Part shown: positions 206 through 55,936 of the stretch, one piece after another
Position numbering within the stretch: position 1 is the stretch's first letter
Layout: every line of letters starts with the position of its first letter
Source of the DNA: Pseudomonadota bacterium
GTDB lineage: Bacteria > Pseudomonadota > Gammaproteobacteria > Acidiferrobacterales > Acidiferrobacteraceae
Direction of reading: 5' to 3'
Length of the DNA: 64,000 nucleotides
NCBI GenBank assembly: GCA_021794595.1
Contig: JAJYQN010000097.1
Coordinates: forward strand, 1 to 64,000
Program-made: the position numbers and the translations under genes
The notes under the pieces: generated by a model
Told to the model about the DNA's origin: nothing
Database searches by the model: none
The model's input: the letters and a program-made list of their open reading frames with translations, nothing else

Positions 206-1669
206 TCACCAGGTCCAGGCCGGGTCTAGGAGCAGGGCTAGGCTGAATCGGACTCCGAACCCGGTCGTGTCCGTCGGGATCGCGCCAAGCCCCCCTTTAT
301 GGCGGCCTGCAGACAGGTCCAGGTGGATCCAGGTCGGGTCATGCCGCAAGAAGCGCTTAAGGAACAGGGCCGCCAAAATGTGGTCGGCCTCTCCCTCCAG
401 CGTGCACTGCTTGGTGTCGGCGATATCGCTTTTCAGTTCGGTTGCGTAATCGTCCTCCAAGGGGAATGGCCAGACGCGTTCTCCGCTCTTTCGTCCGGCC
501 TCTATGAGCCGTTCGTGGAGCGCCGGTCGATTAGTGAATACCCCCGTCATGCGCGTACTCAAGGCGTATACGCAGGCCCCGGTCAAAGTTGCGTAATCAA
601 TGACCAGGCGGGGCTTGGCTTGGCAGGCCAGAGACAGCGTGTCGGCCAGGACCATGCGCCCTTCGGCATCGGTGTGGACAATTTCGATGGTTGTGCCGTT
701 GCTCGCGTGGACCACGTCGTTAGGGCGGTAACTGCGTGGCCCGATGGCGTTTTCCGCGATGGCGAGATAGCAATCCACGACAAACGGCACCTTCAGTTCG
801 GTCAACGCAAGCAGCGTGCCGAGGGCTACGGCACTGCCCTCCATGTCCTCGTGCATCCCAAACATGTGTCGCGCGGGCTTTATGTTGACGCCTCCGGTGT
901 CGAAGCAAACGCCCTTGCCTACGAGCGCCACCGGGGCCTTCGTGGCCTTCTTCGGGCTGTAACGCAAATGCGCGATGCCGCTCCCGACGGCCTCGGTTTG
1001 GGTAACGGCCAGGAACGCGCCGGCGCCCAGGGTCGCCAGGCGCTTTTCGTCGATAAACTGGAACCGCCAGCCCCATTGGGCGGCCAGTTTCTTGATGTGC
1101 TTCACATAGAGCCGCGGTGTGAGATAATTACCCGGCAATACCGATAGCGCTCGCGCAAGATGATTTCCGCGGGCGCCAGCGAGCAGTTCGGCGTGGTTCT
1201 TCTCGCCGCCATATACATCGATAGCGGTTAATGTTTCGATTCGGTCCTTTGCCTGGAAACGCGGCAGCGGCGCGCGTGCATAGACGCAGCTGACCAGGGC
1301 ATCGAGGGCCTGCCGTTGCGCATCGCCGGTAAGGCCGCCTACCAACAAGGCCGCTTTGCTGACGCCATCTTTAAACTGAGTCAATTTACGGCTCATTTCA
1401 AGCAGCGCAAATGGCGAGAGAGTGTCGTCGGCGAAGCCGACCGCAAGCGTAGTTCCGTCCTCGTCAGGGGCTTCTGTCGTGAAGGACGTACCGGCGCGCA
1501 CGGTCACGTTTTGCGCCTTCAGGCGTTTTGCGAGAAGGCCGCCAAACGGGGTTCTAGAGAGGCCGGAGAGGTCGCGGACTATGATGGCGATATGGCCGTA
1601 TTGGCTGGCCGCCTGTTTCGAGAACGGAGTTTTCAGGTAGCGCGTGCGAGGAGTACGAAATGTCATCAT
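206..1669 (-). CDS. Leucyl aminopeptidase family (M17) metallopeptidase
   Basis: Cytosolic two-metal aminopeptidase that removes N-terminal residues from peptides, used in protein turnover. The 487-residue protein has the M17 layout: a variable N-terminal half and a C-terminal catalytic half with the metal-binding stretch GKGVCFDTGG and the signature HTDAEGRMVLAD (the usual NTDAEGR with His for Asn). A longer reading frame runs up to 1756, but its first 29 residues do not look like the family. I prefer the ATG at 1669, directly followed by a second ATG. It is divergent from pdhA with about 130 bases between them. The assignment to M17 is firm; whether it is the PepA or a PepB-like subtype is not settled. 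Confidence 0.9.
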   Translation of the reverse strand: MMTFRTPRTRYLKTPFSKQAASQYGHIAIIVRDLSGLSRTPFGGLLAKRLKAQNVTVRAGTSFTTEAPDEDGTTLAVGFADDTLSPFALLEMSRKLTQFKDGVSKAALLVGGLTGDAQRQALDALVSCVYARAPLPRFQAKDRIETLTAIDVYGGEKNHAELLAGARGNHLARALSVLPGNYLTPRLYVKHIKKLAAQWGWRFQFIDEKRLATLGAGAFLAVTQTEAVGSGIAHLRYSPKKATKAPVALVGKGVCFDTGGVNIKPARHMFGMHEDMEGSAVALGTLLALTELKVPFVVDCYLAIAENAIGPRSYRPNDVVHASNGTTIEIVHTDAEGRMVLADTLSLACQAKPRLVIDYATLTGACVYALSTRMTGVFTNRPALHERLIEAGRKSGERVWPFPLEDDYATELKSDIADTKQCTLEGEADHILAALFLKRFLRHDPTWIHLDLSAGRHKGGLGAIPTDTTGFGVRFSLALLLDPAWTW

Positions 1670-1798
1670 GGCCTTTGCCTTGACCTCTACTCGTAAAAAC
1701 CTGATCATACCCCCGCGCTTGGGCCCGGCGCACGGGTCTTTGCACGCCTCGGGCACGCCTCGGGTTTAGACACTCAACTATTTTGGTCCAGGATTGAA

Positions 1799-2812
1799 AT
1801 GAAGGCTGACGATCAGAAGCGACTGTTACGCGAAATGATTTTTTACCGCCGATTCGAGGAGCGGTCCTTCGAGGCGTATATGGAGCGGAAGATCGGGGGC
1901 TTTCTCCATCTCTACTCTGGACAGGAGGCGGTCGCGACTGGGGTCTTGGAGAAGGCGCGCTGTGGTCACGACTACGTGATCACCGGATACCGTGACCATG
2001 TCCACGCCCTAAAGGCCGGGGCGCCCCCGCGCGAGGTCATGGCCGAGCTTTATGGGAAGGTCACCGGTTCGAGCCGCGGACGGGGCGGTTCTATGCATAT
2101 TTTCGATCCGTCGGTGAATTTCATGGGCGGCTACGCGCTTGTGGGTCAGCCGTTCCCGCTCGCCGCGGGCTTGGCCCTTGCCGCCAAGCACAAAGGCACG
2201 GACCAGATCGCGATCTGTTTTCTGGGTGATGGCGCAAATAATCAGGGAACGTTTCACGAGACGCTCAATATGGCCTCTTTGTGGAAGTTGCCCGTTCTTT
2301 TTGTGTGTGAGAATAATCTCTATGCTATCGGCACCCGGATCGACCGGTCTTCAGCGGTGATCGATCAGTACAAGCGCGTTGGGGCCTATAACATCCCGAG
2401 TAGCCAGCACGACGGTCAGGATATTGATGTGGTGATGGCCGCCGCGCGCACGGCGATCGATCACGTCCGAGGGGGCTCAGGCCCTTATTTCATCGAGTTT
2501 ATGACCTATCGCCAGCGCGGCCATTCGATGTCCGATTCCAACGCCTATCGTTCCAAAGAGGAAGAGCGGCAATGGGCTGAACGGGACCCGATAAAGATCT
2601 ATGGCGACCGCTTAAAGAAAGCCGGGATCCTGACCGACAAAGACATTGCCGATCTCGAGAAGTCGGTCCTTGATGAGATCGAAAACGAAGTGGTGCGTTT
2701 TGCCGAAGAGAGTCCGGAGCCGCGTGTGGAAGATTTGAACAAATATTGTTTGGACGACCAACCCAACCCGCAATGGATCGGACCGCTGGTCCAAGGTGAT
2801 CAGCATGGCTGA
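1799..2812 (+). CDS. pdhA: Pyruvate dehydrogenase E1 component, alpha subunit
   Basis: Thiamine-diphosphate-dependent decarboxylase subunit that, with E1 beta, decarboxylates pyruvate and reductively acetylates the E2 lipoyl arm. The 337-residue length fits the alpha2beta2 type E1. The ThDP/Mg motif begins GDGANNQG and ends in the following CENN. The HxxRxRG-like stretch YRQRGHSMSD near the C-terminus matches the alpha-subunit phosphorylation-loop region. First gene of pdhA-pdhB-E2/E3-argG; its stop overlaps the start of pdhB by 8 bases (ATGGCTGA), so the two subunits are likely translationally coupled. The substrate could in principle be another 2-oxoacid, but pyruvate is most likely from family similarity. 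Confidence 0.93.
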   Translation: MKADDQKRLLREMIFYRRFEERSFEAYMERKIGGFLHLYSGQEAVATGVLEKARCGHDYVITGYRDHVHALKAGAPPREVMAELYGKVTGSSRGRGGSMHIFDPSVNFMGGYALVGQPFPLAAGLALAAKHKGTDQIAICFLGDGANNQGTFHETLNMASLWKLPVLFVCENNLYAIGTRIDRSSAVIDQYKRVGAYNIPSSQHDGQDIDVVMAAARTAIDHVRGGSGPYFIEFMTYRQRGHSMSDSNAYRSKEEERQWAERDPIKIYGDRLKKAGILTDKDIADLEKSVLDEIENEVVRFAEESPEPRVEDLNKYCLDDQPNPQWIGPLVQGDQHG

Positions 2813-3785
2813 TATGGCATATTGGGAGGCGATACGGCGCGCGCATGATGAGGAATTGGCGCACGATCGCATGGTTATTGCGATGGGCGAAGACATCGGG
2901 GTGGCTGGCGGAACATATAAGGCGACTTCGGGCCTTTACCAAAAATATGGCGCGGAGCGCATCATCGACACGCCGATTTCCGAGAATTCCTACACCGGCA
3001 TAGGCATCGGGGCGTCGATGGCGGGCCTCCGACCCATTATCGAGATCATGTCGATCAATTTCGCCTTGCTGGCGCTGGATACATTGATCAATGCCGCCGC
3101 CAAGATTCGCTACATGTCGGGAGGCCGCGCCTCCTGTCCGATCGTGATGCGTACGCCCGGTGGAACAGCCCATCAGTTAGCAGCTCAGCATTCGGCGAGG
3201 CTTGCGCGCATGTTCATGAGTACCCCGGGACTTCGCGTCGTCACACCGCGCGGGCCTCTCGATGCCTATGGGATGCTGAAATCGGCGGTGCGGTGCAACG
3301 ACCCGGTTATCATCATCGAGCACGAGAGCATGTATAACATGCGCGGCGAAGTGCCGGATGAGGAGTCGTTTAGGCCCTTGGAGGGCGCGGAAATCGTGCG
3401 TGCCGGGACCGATGTGACCCTGATTGGCTACAATTATAGTGTCCATTTGTGTCTAGCCGCAGCCGATAAGCTCGCGTCCATGGGGCTGTCCGCCGAGGTC
3501 TTGGATCTCAGGGCCTTAAGGCCCATAGACCGCGATACCATACGCCGGTCTGTGGAAAAGACGCACAAGGTCGTCATTGCCGAGGAGGATGAGGCGGCGG
3601 TGGGCGTGGGGGCGGAAATCATATCAGTGATTATCGAAGAGTGTTTTTTTGCTCTCGATGCTCAGCCGGTGCGCGTACATGCGGCCGATGTCCCGGTCCC
3701 CTATAATCGTCTTCTCGAGAAGGCTGCTATTCCGAATGCTGATGATGTGCTGGCAGCGGCACTCAAGGTCCTGGGCCGCGTTTAG
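2805..3785 (+). CDS. pdhB: Pyruvate dehydrogenase E1 component, beta subunit
   Basis: Partner of pdhA in the E1 heterotetramer; it binds the ThDP pyrimidine side and docks E1 onto E2. The 326 residues show the beta-subunit pattern: an early GEDIG motif, the TPISE stretch, the RTPGG segment and a C-terminal transketolase-like domain ending with the VPVPYN motif. An ATG lies 9 bases upstream at 2796, but the ATG at 2805 has the better-placed AAGGTGAT ribosome-binding site and gives the N-terminus MADMAYWEAI typical of the family. 48 bases separate its stop from the fused E2-E3 gene, so all three enzyme components are likely made from one message. Confidence 0.93.
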   Translation: MADMAYWEAIRRAHDEELAHDRMVIAMGEDIGVAGGTYKATSGLYQKYGAERIIDTPISENSYTGIGIGASMAGLRPIIEIMSINFALLALDTLINAAAKIRYMSGGRASCPIVMRTPGGTAHQLAAQHSARLARMFMSTPGLRVVTPRGPLDAYGMLKSAVRCNDPVIIIEHESMYNMRGEVPDEESFRPLEGAEIVRAGTDVTLIGYNYSVHLCLAAADKLASMGLSAEVLDLRALRPIDRDTIRRSVEKTHKVVIAEEDEAAVGVGAEIISVIIEECFFALDAQPVRVHAADVPVPYNRLLEKAAIPNADDVLAAALKVLGRV

Positions 3786-3833
3786 CCGCTTGACCCGACC
3801 TCCACTTTAGCCAAATTTTAGGATCAGCCCATT

Positions 3834-6800
3834 ATGGCCGAACCGTTCCTCATCAAGATGCCGCAACTCTCAGATACGATGTCGGAGGGCACGCTCGTGT
3901 CGTGGGAAAAGGCGGTGGGTGACTTTATCGCCCGTGGCACGGTCGTGGCTACGGTCGAGACCGATAAGGCGATCATGGACGTCGAGGTGTTTCGGGAAGG
4001 GTACTTGTCGGGACCGCTCGCAGCGCTTGGGGTCGCGATCCCCGTCGGTGCTCCCATTGCGGTCTTGGTCGCCGACGCCAAGGCGGTGGCGACCGGTGAA
4101 CAGGCCCCGGCGGCAGCCGTGGTGGCCGAAGCGTCCCCAGACAGCGTTACTCCGGTGGGCCAGGCGATCAAGATGCCGCAACTCTCAGATACAATGTCGG
4201 AAGGCACGCTCGTGTCGTGGGAAAAGGCGGTGGGCGACTTTATCGCCCGTGGCACGGTCGTGGCTACGGTCGAGACCGATAAGGCGATCATGGACGTCGA
4301 GGTGTTTCGGGAAGGGTACTTGTCGGGCCCTCAGGCCGCCGTGGGACAAGTCGTTCCAGTCGGCGGACCCATCGCTTATCTGGTAGCCACGGCCCAGGAA
4401 GTGGCAGGTGGCGACATACCCAAGGCGCCAGCCGCTTTGGTCGCGAAACCAGTTCCGCCCACGAGCCCCGTGCCGTCCGGCAGCGCTCAACCCAAAACTC
4501 GGGCGCCGGCCATGCCTCACGGGGCCACACCGGCTCCGCGTCCCCAGAAGGTGGCCGCGACCCCTTACGCCCGGCAATTGGCCGGGGCCCATGGCATCGA
4601 CATCAATAGCCTATCGGGTACCGGGCCCAGCGGGCGGATTCTCGGCGCCGATGTCGTGGGCGCTGGCGGCGGCCCGCGCGTATCGGCTAAACGCGTCTTC
4701 CAGGTAGCTGGCTCCGGGCGTCCCATGGACAGCATGGAAAAGGCCGTGAGCCAGAATATGGAGTATTCGCTCTCCATGCCGCTTTTCCGGGTCACGATCC
4801 ATGTGCAGCCTGAGCGTCTGGCGGCCACCGCCAAGGAACGCAAGGTGTCTTTGACGGTATTGTTGGCGGCCGCGGCGGCCCGGGCAGTGGTGCGTCACCC
4901 GCGCGTGAACTCCGTCTACCAACATGAAGATCGCATCGTTGAGCGGACGCAAATCGACGTCGGTTTGGCGGTAGAGACCGAAGGCATGGGGCTTGTGGTC
5001 CCCGTGCTTCGCGATGTCCCGAACCGGAGCATCGAAGACCTCAATGCCCAATGGAAGGATTTGGTTGGCCGGGCGCGGTTGAAGCGCCTCAAGCCTGAGG
5101 AATACTCGAACCCGACCTTTACCATCTCCAATATGGGGATGCTGGGAGTGACTCAGTTCGACGCCATCCCGGTGCCCGGCACCTCGGCGATTTTTGCGAT
5201 TGCCAGTACTCAACCGCAGGGCATGCCGGTGACCGTGACGGCTGATCACCGTATCGTGAACGGGGCCGAGGCGGCTAAGTTCCTCAATACCTTTAAGGGT
5301 CTGGTCGAGGATCCGGCGTGGCTTTCCGGGAAGGCTTCGACAGTGAAGGCGGCGACGGTTTCAGCTACGCGGCCGAACGCCGCGCGGGCGAGCGAGTCGG
5401 CACCGGTCGATACCAGCCATTATGATTGTGATGTTCTCATTATCGGCGGCGGTCCGGGCGGTGAGGATTGTGCCCGGGAACTCGCGGATCACGGCAAACG
5501 CGTCATCATGGTGAACGATGCGCCGTTGCCGGGAGGCGAGTGCCTGTGGCGCGGATGTATTCCCTCCAAGGCCTGGCGGGCGGCGGCCGACCGCATGCGT
5601 GATCGCAGCCACGACAGCGGCTTGGGCGTATTGAACACTGCGGCCCCGACGCTCAACTGGGCGAAGCTCGACCGGATGCGTAAGCGTGTTCTCGAGACGC
5701 GCGGCGACATGGCGATGAAGACCGACAAGGGCGTTCGCATCGATGTCCGCCAAGGTTTTGGGTATTTTGATTCGGATCATAGCGCGATCGTGGTAAAGAG
5801 CGACGCGACCAATCTGTACGAGCGCCGAGCCGCGAAGGCCGGTGTTGCCGGAAAGCGCATCACCTTCGGGAGTGCTGTGATTGCGACCGGAGCCCCGCCC
5901 TTTGTCCCGCCCATAGCGGGTGCCGACGAAGAGGGCGTTCTCACCTCCGATACGGTGTGGAATTTGAAGGCCCCTCCCAAGCGCCTTGTGATTGTGGGCG
6001 CGGGCGCGATTGGTCTCGAGATGGCTCAGATCTTCGCGGATTTCGGGACCAAGGTCATAGTTCTCGAGGCGCGCGACCGGGTCTTGCCGGAGGTCGAAAA
6101 GGAGGTTGCGGCCCAGCTCGCGCTGCTATTGGCCGAAGAAAAGCGGCTCACCATAGTGACGTCGGCATCGGTACAGAAGATCGGCGGCGGCATAGGCGCG
6201 ATGTCGGTGAGCTATGTGGTCGACGGCGCCCAGCGCGTGGCCAAGACGGATTATGTCCTCATGGCGACCGGCAAGCGTCCGGTCACGGAGCCCCTGGCCT
6301 TGGCCCGGGCGGGCGTAAAGGTGGATCGCGGGGCGATTGTGGTCGACGCGCAGGGCCGTACCAGCGTACCGCACATCTTTGCGGTCGGCGATGTGGTTGG
6401 TGGCTATATGCTGGCGCACACCGCGGGCCATCAGGGGCGGGTAGCCGCCCAGACCATCCTTGGACATCAGGCGGCCTATGAGGAAGCCAAGGATTGCGGG
6501 GTGATCTTCACTCGCCCCCAGGCCGCATTTGTCGGTCTGACCGCCGATCAGGCGCGCGAGCGTGGTCTCGATCCGGCCGAGATCAAGGTACCATTCTCTA
6601 TAGACGCCAAAGCAATGATGACCGGCGAGACCGCTGGTTTCATCAAGATCGTGGCCGATAAGGTGACGCATCGGATCGTGGGCGTGCATTTTCTGGCCGA
6701 CCATGCCGATACCCTGATCGGGGCCGCCGTGCTCATGGTCAGTGCCGATCTGACGCTTGAACAGGTGGGCTCTGCCATTCACCCGCACCCGACGCAAACC

Positions 6801-52627: not shown

Positions 52628-53512
52628 GTGACGATCGGCGACATCAATTTGTGGAATCCCGGGCTTCTTGGCCTCAGCGTGGGTTTGGCGCTTGTGACCG
52701 CGTTCTTCCTTGGCATGGTGCATGGCATCACACCGGATGAGCATACCTGGCCTATCACCTTTAATTACGCCATCGGTTCCTATTCCATACGCGGGGGCCT
52801 CAAAGCCGGCCTTTTGTTTTCCTTGACCTTCACCTTACAGCGGGCGATCGCGAGCGAGTTGGCCTATTTCGCGATGGCGGAATTTTTGAAAGGAGTGGGC
52901 TGGAACTTCGCGGTCTATGTCGTGGTCGGTTCGGTCATGCTCGGTTCCGGCCTCTATATCTTGCGCCGTGGCCGCATCCCTCATCTCTTTCATAGCCACG
53001 CCGTGGACCATGAGGTCGCCCCCGCGGAGCCCGGCGCCTTGCCGACTTATATGCCGCTCGTCCATGGGTTTATTGCCGGTTGGGGGACCGGGGCCTTTGC
53101 GCTGATCGTGTACACCGTTTTGGCGCCGGCCATGCATAGCCCGTATCTCGCCTTTTTGCCGGGTTTGTTGTTCGGCTTTGGCACCATGATCATGCAAATG
53201 CTGCTCGGTTCTTTGTTCGGAGCCTGGATGGCGCGGCGCCGGCTCGACGACCGCGCCCGGATTTATGTGGCGCGCAAAATGGCGGGCCGGACCCTGACCG
53301 GGGGAGGGATCTCCTTTGTCGTGGCCGGCATTATCGGTTTTATCGACCCGAGTCTTGTGACCGGCTCGATACCCACGGACGTTCCTATTCATAACCTCGG
53401 CCATTTGGGCGTCGGTTTTTTCCTGGTCCTGATCCTTCTCGTCCCGATCGCCGGCTATTCCTTTTGGAAGTCCCTGCGCGAGGCGCGGGGACTCTTCCCG
53501 CTCGTTCCCTGA
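52628..53512 (+). CDS. Multi-pass membrane protein, possibly NicO/UreH-like metal transporter
   Basis: A 294-residue protein with about six or seven hydrophobic segments. The first has GMVHGITPDEHTWP, reminiscent of the HxxxxDH metal motif in nickel/cobalt permeases; a His-rich stretch FHSHAVDHE follows after the third segment. The motif is not identical, so transport of Ni or Co is only a suggestion. It starts at GTG 26 bases after epmB, likely cotranscribed. Confidence 0.6.
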   Translation: MTIGDINLWNPGLLGLSVGLALVTAFFLGMVHGITPDEHTWPITFNYAIGSYSIRGGLKAGLLFSLTFTLQRAIASELAYFAMAEFLKGVGWNFAVYVVVGSVMLGSGLYILRRGRIPHLFHSHAVDHEVAPAEPGALPTYMPLVHGFIAGWGTGAFALIVYTVLAPAMHSPYLAFLPGLLFGFGTMIMQMLLGSLFGAWMARRRLDDRARIYVARKMAGRTLTGGGISFVVAGIIGFIDPSLVTGSIPTDVPIHNLGHLGVGFFLVLILLVPIAGYSFWKSLREARGLFPLVP

Positions 53513-53530
53513 GCCGGATTGGCCCGAGTC

Positions 53531-54169
53531 TCAATGACTGGGCTGCGGGGTCATGCGCAGATAGGGCCTGATCTCGCGGTAGCCTTTAGGAAATTTGGCG
53601 GTCAGCGTGTCCTTGTCTTTTATGGAAGGCGAGATCACGACCTCGTCGCCGTTGTGCCAGTTGGCCGGGGTCGCAACGTTGTACTTGTCGGTTAATTGCA
53701 GCGAATCGATGACCCGAAAGATTTCGCCGAATTCCCGCCCGGTGCTGGCCGGATAGGTCAGAATCGTACGGATCGTCTTTTTGGGGTCGATCATAAAAAC
53801 CGAGCGCACGGTGAGCGTGTTGTTTTGTTTCGGATGTATCATGTCGTACAAGCCTGCCACCTTGCGGTCTTGATCCCCAAGGATCGGGAAATTGACGTGG
53901 GTTTTCTGCGTTTCATTGATATCCTCTATCCAGTCGGTATGGCTCGCCACCGGATCGACGCTGACTGCCAGGACCTTGACGTCGCGTCGGCGAAACTCCT
54001 CGGCCAGCTTGGCGGCGCTTCCGAGCTCGGTCGTGCAAACGGGGGTGTAATCGGCCGGGTGGGAGAAGAGTACGGCCCAATGGTCGCCAATCCATTTATG
54101 AAACTGAATGGGCCCTTCCGTGGAGTCCTGGGTAAAGTCGGGGGCGGTATCGCCAAGATGTAAGGTCAT
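53531..54169 (-). CDS. 1-Cys peroxiredoxin (Prx6 type)
   Basis: A 212-residue peroxidase with the peroxidatic Cys in HPADYTPVCTTELG, the Arg in GREFGEIFR and the long C-terminal Prx6 domain ending GYREIRPYLR. No resolving Cys is seen. Reduces H2O2 or organic peroxides. It stands alone, converging with the upstream membrane protein. Confidence 0.93.
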   Translation of the reverse strand: MTLHLGDTAPDFTQDSTEGPIQFHKWIGDHWAVLFSHPADYTPVCTTELGSAAKLAEEFRRRDVKVLAVSVDPVASHTDWIEDINETQKTHVNFPILGDQDRKVAGLYDMIHPKQNNTLTVRSVFMIDPKKTIRTILTYPASTGREFGEIFRVIDSLQLTDKYNVATPANWHNGDEVVISPSIKDKDTLTAKFPKGYREIRPYLRMTPQPSH

Positions 54170-54255
54170 GGAATAACTCTCCTATGCGAGGGGTATGAAC
54201 GGTCCGCAAGCTTAAGAAATGGCGAGGATTCGCTAAAGAGGCTAAGGGAGGAGTC

Positions 54256-54537
54256 GTGGCGTGTTTTCGGTATCTTGTGTCTGGAACGGTCCAGGGCGTG
54301 GGCTTCCGGGCTTATGTATGGAGAGAGGCGCAGGCATTGGGCCTTCGTGGCTTTGTTCGTAACCGTAGCGATGGAAAAGTAGAGGTTGAGGCCTGCGGCA
54401 CGGGCTCGCAACTACAGGGCCTGGCGACGGTTCTTGCGCGTGGCCCGCGCGAAGCGCGGGTTACGGGTGTGGAAAAATGTGATATCCCAGATCCTGGCGG
54501 GCCGGCGGTTTTTGCTATCCGGCGCGACGTTGATTAA
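54256..54537 (+). CDS. acyP: Acylphosphatase
   Basis: A 93-residue enzyme hydrolysing carboxyl-phosphate bonds. The phosphate loop is SGTVQGVGFRAYVW with catalytic Arg and, later, FVRNRSDGKVEVE with Asn. The start is GTG 6 bases after a GGAGG region. Confidence 0.93.
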   Translation: MACFRYLVSGTVQGVGFRAYVWREAQALGLRGFVRNRSDGKVEVEACGTGSQLQGLATVLARGPREARVTGVEKCDIPDPGGPAVFAIRRDVD

Positions 54538-54678
54538 ACTGAATATGATGGACGTCCCCTACATTGCAAGCACGGATTCGCTTTGGAATTAGGGTTGGAC
54601 TGCATAAATACCGCGTAAATATATCCGGCCTCTGATGTGTCCGTCGACACAAGCCCGCTCTAAACCGAGGAAGCCGAT

Positions 54679-55119
54679 ATGATCGAAAGAAGCGGAAATT
54701 GCCTTTGTGGTGCCGTGCGCTACCGTATTTCAGGCGAACCTGTGTTAACGCGTGTTTGCTGGTGCCGAGATTGTCAGTACCTGGCTGCCAACGGCACCGT
54801 CAATATTTTGGTACCGACGAACGCGCTGGAGATATCAGGTCAGCTCAGCACTTTCATGAGCACGGCAGACAGCGGGAATCAAATGAGCCGCCGATTCTGT
54901 CCACAATGTGGATCGCACCTTTTTTCAAATTCGCCAGCACGCCCGCAATTCACCGTGGTCCGCGTTGGCACCCTGAGCGACCCGTCATCTGTGCAGCCAG
55001 TGGCGAATATCTGGGCTAGCAGCGCGCCGAAGTGGGCGTGCCTTGATTCCACCTTGGAGCACATCGAGCGACAACCTCCGCCCCCGCCGAGCCCGGGATC
55101 CGCACAACCTGACCTATGA
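54679..55119 (+). CDS. GFA (glutathione-dependent formaldehyde-activating enzyme) family protein
   Basis: A 146-residue zinc protein of the GFA/CENP-V fold: CLCGAVRYRISGEP, RVCWCRDCQ and FCPQCGSHLFS hold the Cys ligands. Despite the family name, the substrate is generally unknown. The C-terminal PPPPPSPG tail is unusual. Flanking bases are more AT-rich than neighbours. The attC-like site downstream (55174-55226) and a GTTGGAC sequence upstream (54594-54600) suggest that it arrived as an integron cassette. Confidence 0.82.
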   Translation: MIERSGNCLCGAVRYRISGEPVLTRVCWCRDCQYLAANGTVNILVPTNALEISGQLSTFMSTADSGNQMSRRFCPQCGSHLFSNSPARPQFTVVRVGTLSDPSSVQPVANIWASSAPKWACLDSTLEHIERQPPPPPSPGSAQPDL

Positions 55120-55173
55120 GCATCGGGCTATGGTTCTCTGTTCATACATGTGGTGAGTGAAAGCGTGCTGCCC

Positions 55174-55226
55174 ACCTATCGTTCCCGCAGAGCGCCTTCG
55201 GCGACCTCTGAACTCAAACGTTATAT
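55174..55226 (+). mobile_element. Degenerate attC-like (59-base-element) site
   Basis: Downstream of the GFA gene and on the same strand. Outer boxes ACCTATC (55174-55180, near RYYYAAC) and GTTATAT (55220-55226, near GTTRRRY) each have one mismatch. The central hairpin CAGAGCGCC-TTC-GGCG(AC)CTCTG (55188-55210) has a two-base bulge. The right arm GAACTCAAACGTTATAT resembles the right arm of the aadA1 attC. No integrase gene is in the window. Confidence 0.5.
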
Positions 55227-55363
55227 TGCAGAACGGCGTTGACCACATCTCACGGTACTCACCGAGCGGCTCCGACTCACTATGCGCGGGTATTGTCACC
55301 GCGCGGAGTCTATCCGGGTGAAAGGAAAGCGTTGGATTTGAGCCCACAACGAAGACGTGGGAA

Positions 55364-55936
55364 TTACTGGTGGAACCAGCGGGCATGAAACACGGCGTAG
55401 ACCCGGTCCGGATAGTAAGGGAGGCCGTTACTGCCGTTGTAGGCCGCGAGCGCCGTAAATAGGTCTCCGCGGTGGCGGTTGAGATAGTGACGCAGTATGT
55501 AGCAACCGATGCGCAAATTGGTCCGCATCCGAAAGAGATTGGCCTTCGGTTCACCAAGACGCCTAGTCCAAAAGGGCATGACTTGCATAAGGCCAAGCGC
55601 CCCCATCGGTGACACCGCGTAAGGATCGAAGTCGCTCTCGACTTCGATCACCGCGAGGACGATCCGTGGGCGAAGTCCATCGCGAAGGGCCGCGTAGCGC
55701 ACGTCTTCGAGAAACTGTAGGCGGAAATGTCGCCCGGGGACCAAAGGCGCTAGGCGCTGCGACATATCGGCAAGCCATACCTCGGCGGCAAAGCGGCTCG
55801 TGAATCCGTCGCGATGCACGGGAATATGGCCCCAGGGCGACGCCTGCGCCTCGGCCCGGGTCGTTAAGAACGATAGGCCCAGTACGAGAAAGCTAGCGCC
55901 GCAAACGTTCCGTAAGCTCTGCCACCACCCGTTCAA
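55364..55936 (-). CDS. Lytic transglycosylase SLT-domain protein
   Basis: A 190-residue secreted murein hydrolase with a signal peptide (about 1-30) and a C-terminal SLT domain: catalytic Glu in [25 protein letters not shown] and AALAAYNGS. Its start overlaps the proS end by 44 bases, in the same direction. A different frame here (to 55596) is a shadow. Confidence 0.88.

What the first reader, a model, noticed from the sequence alone, without database searches (positions are those of the whole stretch)
54594..55226. Probable lone integron cassette carrying a GFA-family gene
An attC-like hairpin with aadA1-like right arm follows the GFA gene in the same direction; GTTGGAC (54594) matches GTTRRRY upstream. 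The stretch is more AT-rich than the flanks. Without an integrase gene this would be a CALIN-type remnant.
Basis: partly seen in the sequence, partly recalled or inferred. Interest (0 to 1): 0.5.

Follow-up and report, generated by a model that had tools for sequence, protein, structure and literature searches.

The report
Acquired GFA gene, eroded cassette suspected
A gene for a small zinc enzyme was picked up by this bacterium and sits between two old neighbours beside the scar of a jumping element; it may once have been an integron cassette, but only half of one cassette signal is left, so it is at best a relic.

Summary
The GFA gene (54679-55119, PF04828) is real and was gained locally. 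It lies in the conserved convergent acyP/SLT interval only in this genome and one same-genus relative (G010); the other genus members examined have different DNA there.

The proposed lone cassette is not intact. Its supposed left edge, GTTGGAC (54594), lies inside a 119-bp remnant of an IS1111-type insertion sequence (54538-54656). No other aligned copy, nor G010, has GTT at that spot.

On the right, 55205-55226 is the best attC right-arm match on either strand of the 64-kb window. It scores like a typical real attC (15.2 against a median of 15.6 bits; at most 3 per million control positions reach this). But no left arm exceeds chance, the hairpin is no more stable than shuffles, and two covariance models make no call, though both have limited sensitivity.

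For a cassette origin: GFA is a common cassette gene; a 66% identical GFA sits in a true cassette array (L012); and this genome, with no integron integrase found, carries three complete lone attC sites elsewhere.

I judge an eroded single cassette about as likely as not. An intact one is very unlikely.

The parts
54256..54537 (+). acylphosphatase gene (acyP), conserved left neighbour of the variable interval
   Evidence: PF00708 81.7 bits; found next to the SLT gene in 11 of the 12 genus genomes searched and in 6 of 7 genomes of the order outside the family
54538..54656 (.). remnant of one end of an IS1111-type insertion sequence (right end and part of the non-coding region downstream of its transposase), cut short before the GFA gene
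   Evidence: 78-82% identical dispersed copies in G002, G008, G001, G004 plus partial copies; in G008 the copy lies 3' of a transposase with PF02371 and PF01548; matching subterminal inverted repeats ATGGACACCCCCTA / TAGGGGGTGTCCAT in the G008 copy
54594..54600 (+).
   Evidence: GTCGGAC in G010, L226 and L227, ATCGGAC in L228 and L229
54679..55119 (+). GFA-family gene, 146 aa, CxC...CxCxxC...CxxC cysteine pattern intact
   Evidence: PF04828 1.8e-32; 97% identical only in G010/L010; dN/dS 0.31 against G010 from only 4+4 changes
55102..55108 (+). GCACAAC, best-ranked candidate for the missing R'' box, overlapping the end of GFA; not better than chance
   Evidence: score 17.1, p 0.24; also the top candidate in G010 (ACACAAC)
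   Evidence: centroid structure; not more stable than shuffles (z +0.59); one pair broken in G010
55205..55226 (+). attC right-arm-like 22-mer (L' plus spacer plus R' = GTTATAT)
   Evidence: 15.2 bits, best in the window on both strands; 6 of 2,028,042 control positions reach 15.1; identical in G010
55364..55936 (-). SLT transglycosylase gene, conserved right neighbour
   Evidence: PF01464 73.7 bits

Best explanation
A GFA gene (a small zinc protein of the Gfa type) was acquired horizontally into the acyP/SLT interval, a spot that collects insertions in this genus. Shown: the interval varies in content between genus members, an IS1111-type element end is fused to the acyP stop codon on the left of GFA, and half of an attC-like site lies about 100 bp after GFA on the right. 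Inferred: GFA came in as a single integron cassette, inserted by an integrase that is not (or no longer) in the genome. An IS1111 insertion followed by deletion then removed the cassette's left edge, and the attC lost its left arm. The gene is kept as an ordinary chromosomal gene and can no longer be excised as a cassette. The cassette step is the uncertain one.
For: Site-specific gain: of 13 other genus genomes only G010 has a close GFA; the distant GFA hits (29-33% identity) lie elsewhere in their genomes. The interval contents differ: ATPase-like ORF, IS110-like transposase, unrelated ORFs, or nearly nothing. IS remnant. Right arm. GFA as a cassette gene: L012, 66% identical, sits in an array with repeated attC sites, preceded by the right arm TTAAGTCAAACGTTATC; GFA is listed among the most abundant cassette functions in PMC7370490 (passages). 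The same genome holds three complete lone attC sites elsewhere, E 8e-9, 7e-5 and 3e-4, after an Mrr-type nuclease, a small membrane ORF and a DUF4258 gene with a small partner ORF. No integron integrase over the cut-off in the genome or in its family (0 of 18 genomes). GFA and the IS end are both in G010, so the insertion need not be recent, which fits decay.
Against: No cassette left edge exists between the IS end (54656) and the start codon: there is no TT there at all. The left arm is at chance level, the covariance models are silent and the hairpin is not significant. The closest non-genus GFA, L011 at 68%, is not in an array, and only L012 of the 80 GFA loci lies in one by my scan. The right arm was noticed after the fact in a 64-kb window.
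Confidence: 0.48

Rival explanations
1. GFA was acquired by ordinary horizontal transfer or recombination (or with other mobile DNA) and never was an integron cassette; the right arm at 55205-55226 is a chance match.
For: No left edge, no left arm, no covariance call, hairpin not above shuffles. The closest homologue outside the genus, L011, is not in an array. An IS end abuts the gene.
Against: At 3 per million positions the expected number of such arms in the 244 nt after GFA on its strand is about 0.0007. The gene class and the distance to the stop codon fit a cassette. True lone attC sites exist in this genome.
Confidence: 0.43
2. An intact, potentially mobilisable lone cassette (SALIN) from 54594 to 55226, as first proposed.
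For: GTTGGAC and GTTATAT are at the stated places; attC-like right arm.
Against: GTTGGAC is IS1111-type sequence and no other aligned copy has GTT there. No left arm and no covariance call. The three real lone attC sites of the same genome score 34-53 bits with the same model.
Confidence: 0.03
3. GFA is cargo of a non-autonomous derivative of the IS1111-type element, with one IS end on each side.
For: One IS end directly 5' of GFA.
Against: The other IS end is not found after GFA: left-end sequence aligns to 54657-55366 only at shuffle level, and the terminal motif has no good match in 54657-55400.
Confidence: 0.06

Closest known systems
SALIN (single attC site lacking an integron integrase) / CALIN
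   Same: a single gene followed in the same direction by an attC-like signal in a genome without a detectable integron integrase; 115 such single orphan cassettes are reported scattered in Shewanella genomes (PMC9229058, passages)
   Different: here the attC is only half present and the left cassette edge is missing, so the site does not qualify as an attC
Cassette insertion at non-classical attG sites (Loot et al. 2024; not held; seen only as cited in PMC12901181, PMC12444791 and PMC11023631)
   Same: would explain single cassettes scattered over a chromosome
   Different: no junction could be resolved here
IS1111 family of insertion sequences
   Same: DEDD transposase, subterminal inverted repeats, long non-coding region downstream of the transposase gene (PMC11187229, passages)
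   Different: only about 119 bp of one end remain in the window; no transposase
GFA gene cassettes of environmental integrons (for example L012, JANYIO010000316.1)
   Same: 66% identical protein
   Different: L012 has cassette edges and attC sites on both sides of the gene

Membership tests
Integron gene cassette / SALIN | complete attC: paired R''/R' and L''/L' boxes | tested here: not met
   right arm present; left arm p 0.24; no covariance match
Integron gene cassette / SALIN | left edge G/TTRRRY just upstream of the gene, complementary to R'' | tested here: not met
   GTTGGAC is inside an IS1111-type end, and neither G010 nor any aligned copy has GTT there; none between 54657 and 54678
Integron gene cassette / SALIN | one gene oriented towards its attC, attC close behind the stop codon | tested here: inconclusive
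   orientation and spacing fit if the site is an attC; R'' candidate at chance level
Integron gene cassette / SALIN | presence/absence variation at the site between relatives | tested here: met
   close GFA in G000 and G010 only, of 14 genus genomes including the window's own
Integron gene cassette / SALIN | no integron integrase (for CALIN/SALIN) | tested here: met
   best match 78 bits against a cut-off of 265 in the own genome, 92% complete; 0 of 18 family genomes
Integron gene cassette / SALIN | recombination by IntI | not testable with these tools
   needs an assay
IS1111 family (for 54538-54656) | DEDD transposase in full copies | tested here: met
   L227 1795-2835 -: PF02371 72.6 bits, PF01548 45.6 bits
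IS1111 family (for 54538-54656) | subterminal inverted repeats | tested here: met
   ATGGACACCCCCTA / TAGGGGGTGTCCAT in L232
IS1111 family (for 54538-54656) | long non-coding region downstream of the transposase gene | tested here: met
   about 290 bp between the outer end and the transposase stop in L227/L232
GFA (PF04828) | family profile above the gathering score | tested here: met
   112.2 bits against 24.3

The most novel reading that the evidence does not exclude
The genus has no detectable integron integrase, yet its chromosomes carry several independent complete lone cassettes at unrelated loci (at least three in the window's genome, others in G008, G011 and G013). These would be delivered by visiting integrases through attG-type insertion, and the GFA locus would be an older such insertion caught while being erased by IS1111 activity and drift. 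If so, the genus is a natural record of off-target cassette insertion and of cassette decay.
Probability: 0.3. Interest if true: 0.45.

Novelty: new member of a known kind. Interest (0 to 1): 0.22.

Why it matters
It shows that a plausible cassette call can rest on a repeat-derived GTTRRRY plus half an attC, and that comparing flanks across a genus exposes this. It also points to a better object nearby: complete lone attC sites in a genus where no integron integrase was found, which would help to test how single cassettes spread and are fixed outside integrons.

Tried and rejected
Rfam in the neighbourhood and in IS and attC loci: nothing relevant. GFA relatives in viral contigs: none. Plasmids: 602 records with GFA, all under 60% identity, not informative. 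Empty-site reconstruction of the GFA insertion: not possible, because the only close relative (G010) has the same insert and the other genus members are too diverged. Empty site for the C142 cassette in eight genus genomes: no usable flank match. Promoter and terminator scan: one weak promoter-like site on the - strand, none in front of GFA, no terminator. The genus was not identified: a paper search with one guessed genus name gave nothing useful.

Limits: attC training sites were picked by eye after a pattern scan; the covariance models are self-made and not IntegronFinder's; model R1 was built on 24+24-base arms. In the GFA tree 8 of 81 candidate rows were left out because the read frame held a stop, and 1 of 4 genus rows likewise. 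Left out of the null: L012, the integrase loci L174-L204, L010 and the other copies of the GFA locus itself.

Full report
1. What is there. The window is contig C44 of a 2.92-Mb, 153-contig genome, 92% complete. Between the convergent genes acyP (54256-54537 +) and SLT (55364-55936 -) lies a GFA gene, 54679-55119 + (PF04828, 1.8e-32). It is the only GFA match in the genome.

2. The gene is a local gain. Among 60 genomes (the own one included) a close GFA (97% identity) exists besides the window's own only in G010. Seven other genus members have distant GFA matches (29-33% identity) at other places. The acyP/SLT pair is conserved: adjacent in 11 of 12 genus genomes searched (G006 has them on two contigs) and in 6 of 7 genomes of the order outside the family. 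Distances between match ends are 11 to 144 bp in the order, but 46 to 5853 bp in the genus, with unrelated contents: an ATPase-like ORF, an HTH/ATPase-like ORF, an IS110-like transposase, degenerate sequence (names of these ORFs are by eye). I call it an insertion-prone interval. In G012 and G013 the SLT gene was located but the interval was not read. G010 and the window are more alike at 53.5-55.5 kb (96-97%) than around (90-95%), so local recombination between the two lineages is possible.

3. The left side is an insertion-sequence scar. A DNA search of 54538-55363 against the 18 genomes of the family returned, besides the locus itself and G010, only matches to the first 119 bases: G002, G008, G001 and G004 at 78-82% over the whole 119, and shorter pieces in these and in G007 and G003. 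Aligned, these copies begin at a common terminus (ACTGAATATATGGAC in most) and extend beyond the point where the window departs from them. In G008 the copy lies 3' of a gene with the IS110-type domains PF02371 and PF01548, with about 290 bp of non-coding sequence between, and the far end carries the matching subterminal inverted repeat TAGGGGGTGTCCAT. By the criteria in PMC11187229 (passages: subterminal inverted repeats and non-coding region downstream of tnp) this is an IS1111-type element. At the proposed cassette edge GTTGGAC (54594) the other copies read GTCGGAC (L226, L227, and G010), ATCGGAC (L228, L229) or ATCGGTT (the diverged L230); none has GTT. It is element sequence with a point change. 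The other element end is not found between GFA and SLT.

4. The right side carries half an attC. I collected attC sites from integrons of relatives that have an integron integrase: 57 sites chosen by eye from 129 pattern hits. A position-weight model of both arms gives the 22-mer 55205-55226 a right-arm score of 15.2 bits, the highest on both strands of the 64 kb (next 13.3); the leave-one-out median of the true sites is 15.6. In 2,028,042 control positions from other loci, 6 reach 15.1, and two of the loci concerned (L016, L022) hold attC by the second covariance model. The whole-site score is 20.2, below the 5% quantile of true sites (29.0), though the lowest true site has 16.7. With the right arm fixed, the best left arm upstream scores no better than random stretches of the window (p 0.24 of 300). 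Covariance model R1 (arms only, 55 sites) and R2 (whole sites, 55 sites) find nothing in the interval up to E 10; over the whole window R2 gives five matches up to E 10, the best E 0.34, none here. R2 is not very sensitive to the long attC sites of L012: of about seven that I read by eye, two pass E 0.01. So the negative is suggestive, not final. The hairpin is not more stable than shuffles, and one of its pairs is broken in G010.

5. Context that keeps the cassette idea alive. L012 (JANYIO010000316.1, a gammaproteobacterial MAG contig of 4762 bp) is a cassette array that holds a GFA 66% identical to this one. In a tree of 76 rows the window, L010, L011 and L012 fall together (90/98, not a fully supported set); L011 is not in an array. 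The three distant same-genus rows kept in that tree (GENUS_L097, GENUS_L103, GENUS_L104) sit on very long branches, probably misread frames, and are ignored. PMC7370490 (passages) lists GFA among the most abundant cassette functions in metagenomes. R2 finds three complete lone attC sites elsewhere in this same genome: C142:2570-2650 + (E 8.2e-9), C12:14069-14131 - (7.0e-5) and C7:2830-2899 - (2.9e-4). There are also sites in G008 (three at E up to 1, plus one more next to the first), G011, G013, and a weak one in G012; no match in the other 13 of the 18 family genomes. Only 150 of 1666-4787 candidates per genome were scored, so these counts are lower bounds. They follow an Mrr-type nuclease gene, a small membrane ORF, a DUF4258 gene with a small partner ORF, a 241-aa ORF followed by an HNH gene (two attC in a row) and a methyltransferase gene. 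The G008 C2 cassette has an exactly complementary left edge, GTTGGAT, 749 bp upstream; for the other sites no clear exact edge was found. No integron integrase passes the curated cut-off in any of the 18 family genomes, while 12 of the 60 relatives have one.

6. Weighing. The intact-cassette reading fails on both of its edges. A chance right arm at just this place has an expectation near 0.0007, but the site was noticed after the fact, and decay that spares one arm completely while leaving no trace of the other is not the most natural outcome. I put an eroded cassette at 0.48 and a non-cassette acquisition at 0.43, with 0.06 for IS cargo and 0.03 for an intact cassette. What GFA does for the cell was not tested; the cysteine pattern is intact and dN/dS against G010 is 0.31, from only 8 changes.

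Noticed in passing
G000:C142:2570-2650 + (L215 2570-2650), G000:C12:14069-14131 - (L216), G000:C7:2830-2899 - (L217): Three complete lone attC sites in the window's own genome, after an Mrr-type nuclease gene, a small membrane ORF and a DUF4258 gene with a small partner, although no integron integrase passes the cut-off.
   Followed up: partly
G008:C2:163470-163983 - (L209, L218); G008:C1:1329872-1329959 and 1332667-1332757 -: A two-attC array (241-aa ORF, then an HNH gene) with an exact GTTGGAT left edge, and two further attC sites, one directly after a methyltransferase gene that looks like ArsM (that name by eye).
   Followed up: partly
L217 2830-3396 and L212 from 554 on: What looks like the same DUF4258 cassette appears in G000 and G011 with different sequence to the right of the attC, which suggests movement or later rearrangement.
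   Followed up: no
acyP/SLT interval: window 54538-55363; L157-L165: The interval between these convergent genes varies from 46 to 5853 bp with unrelated contents in the genus, but is 11-144 bp in the rest of the order.
   Followed up: partly
window 53500-55500: Identity to G010 rises to 96-97% here against 90-95% around, and dS is 0.04-0.06 in Prx, acyP and GFA against 0.17-0.25 in SLT and the 294-aa ORF: possible local recombination between the two lineages.
   Followed up: partly
G008:C2:42953-44375 (L232 about 954-2376): Full-length IS1111-type element of about 1.4 kb with an approximately 290-bp non-coding region downstream of the transposase, a likely seekRNA source; no Rfam family matches.
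   Followed up: partly
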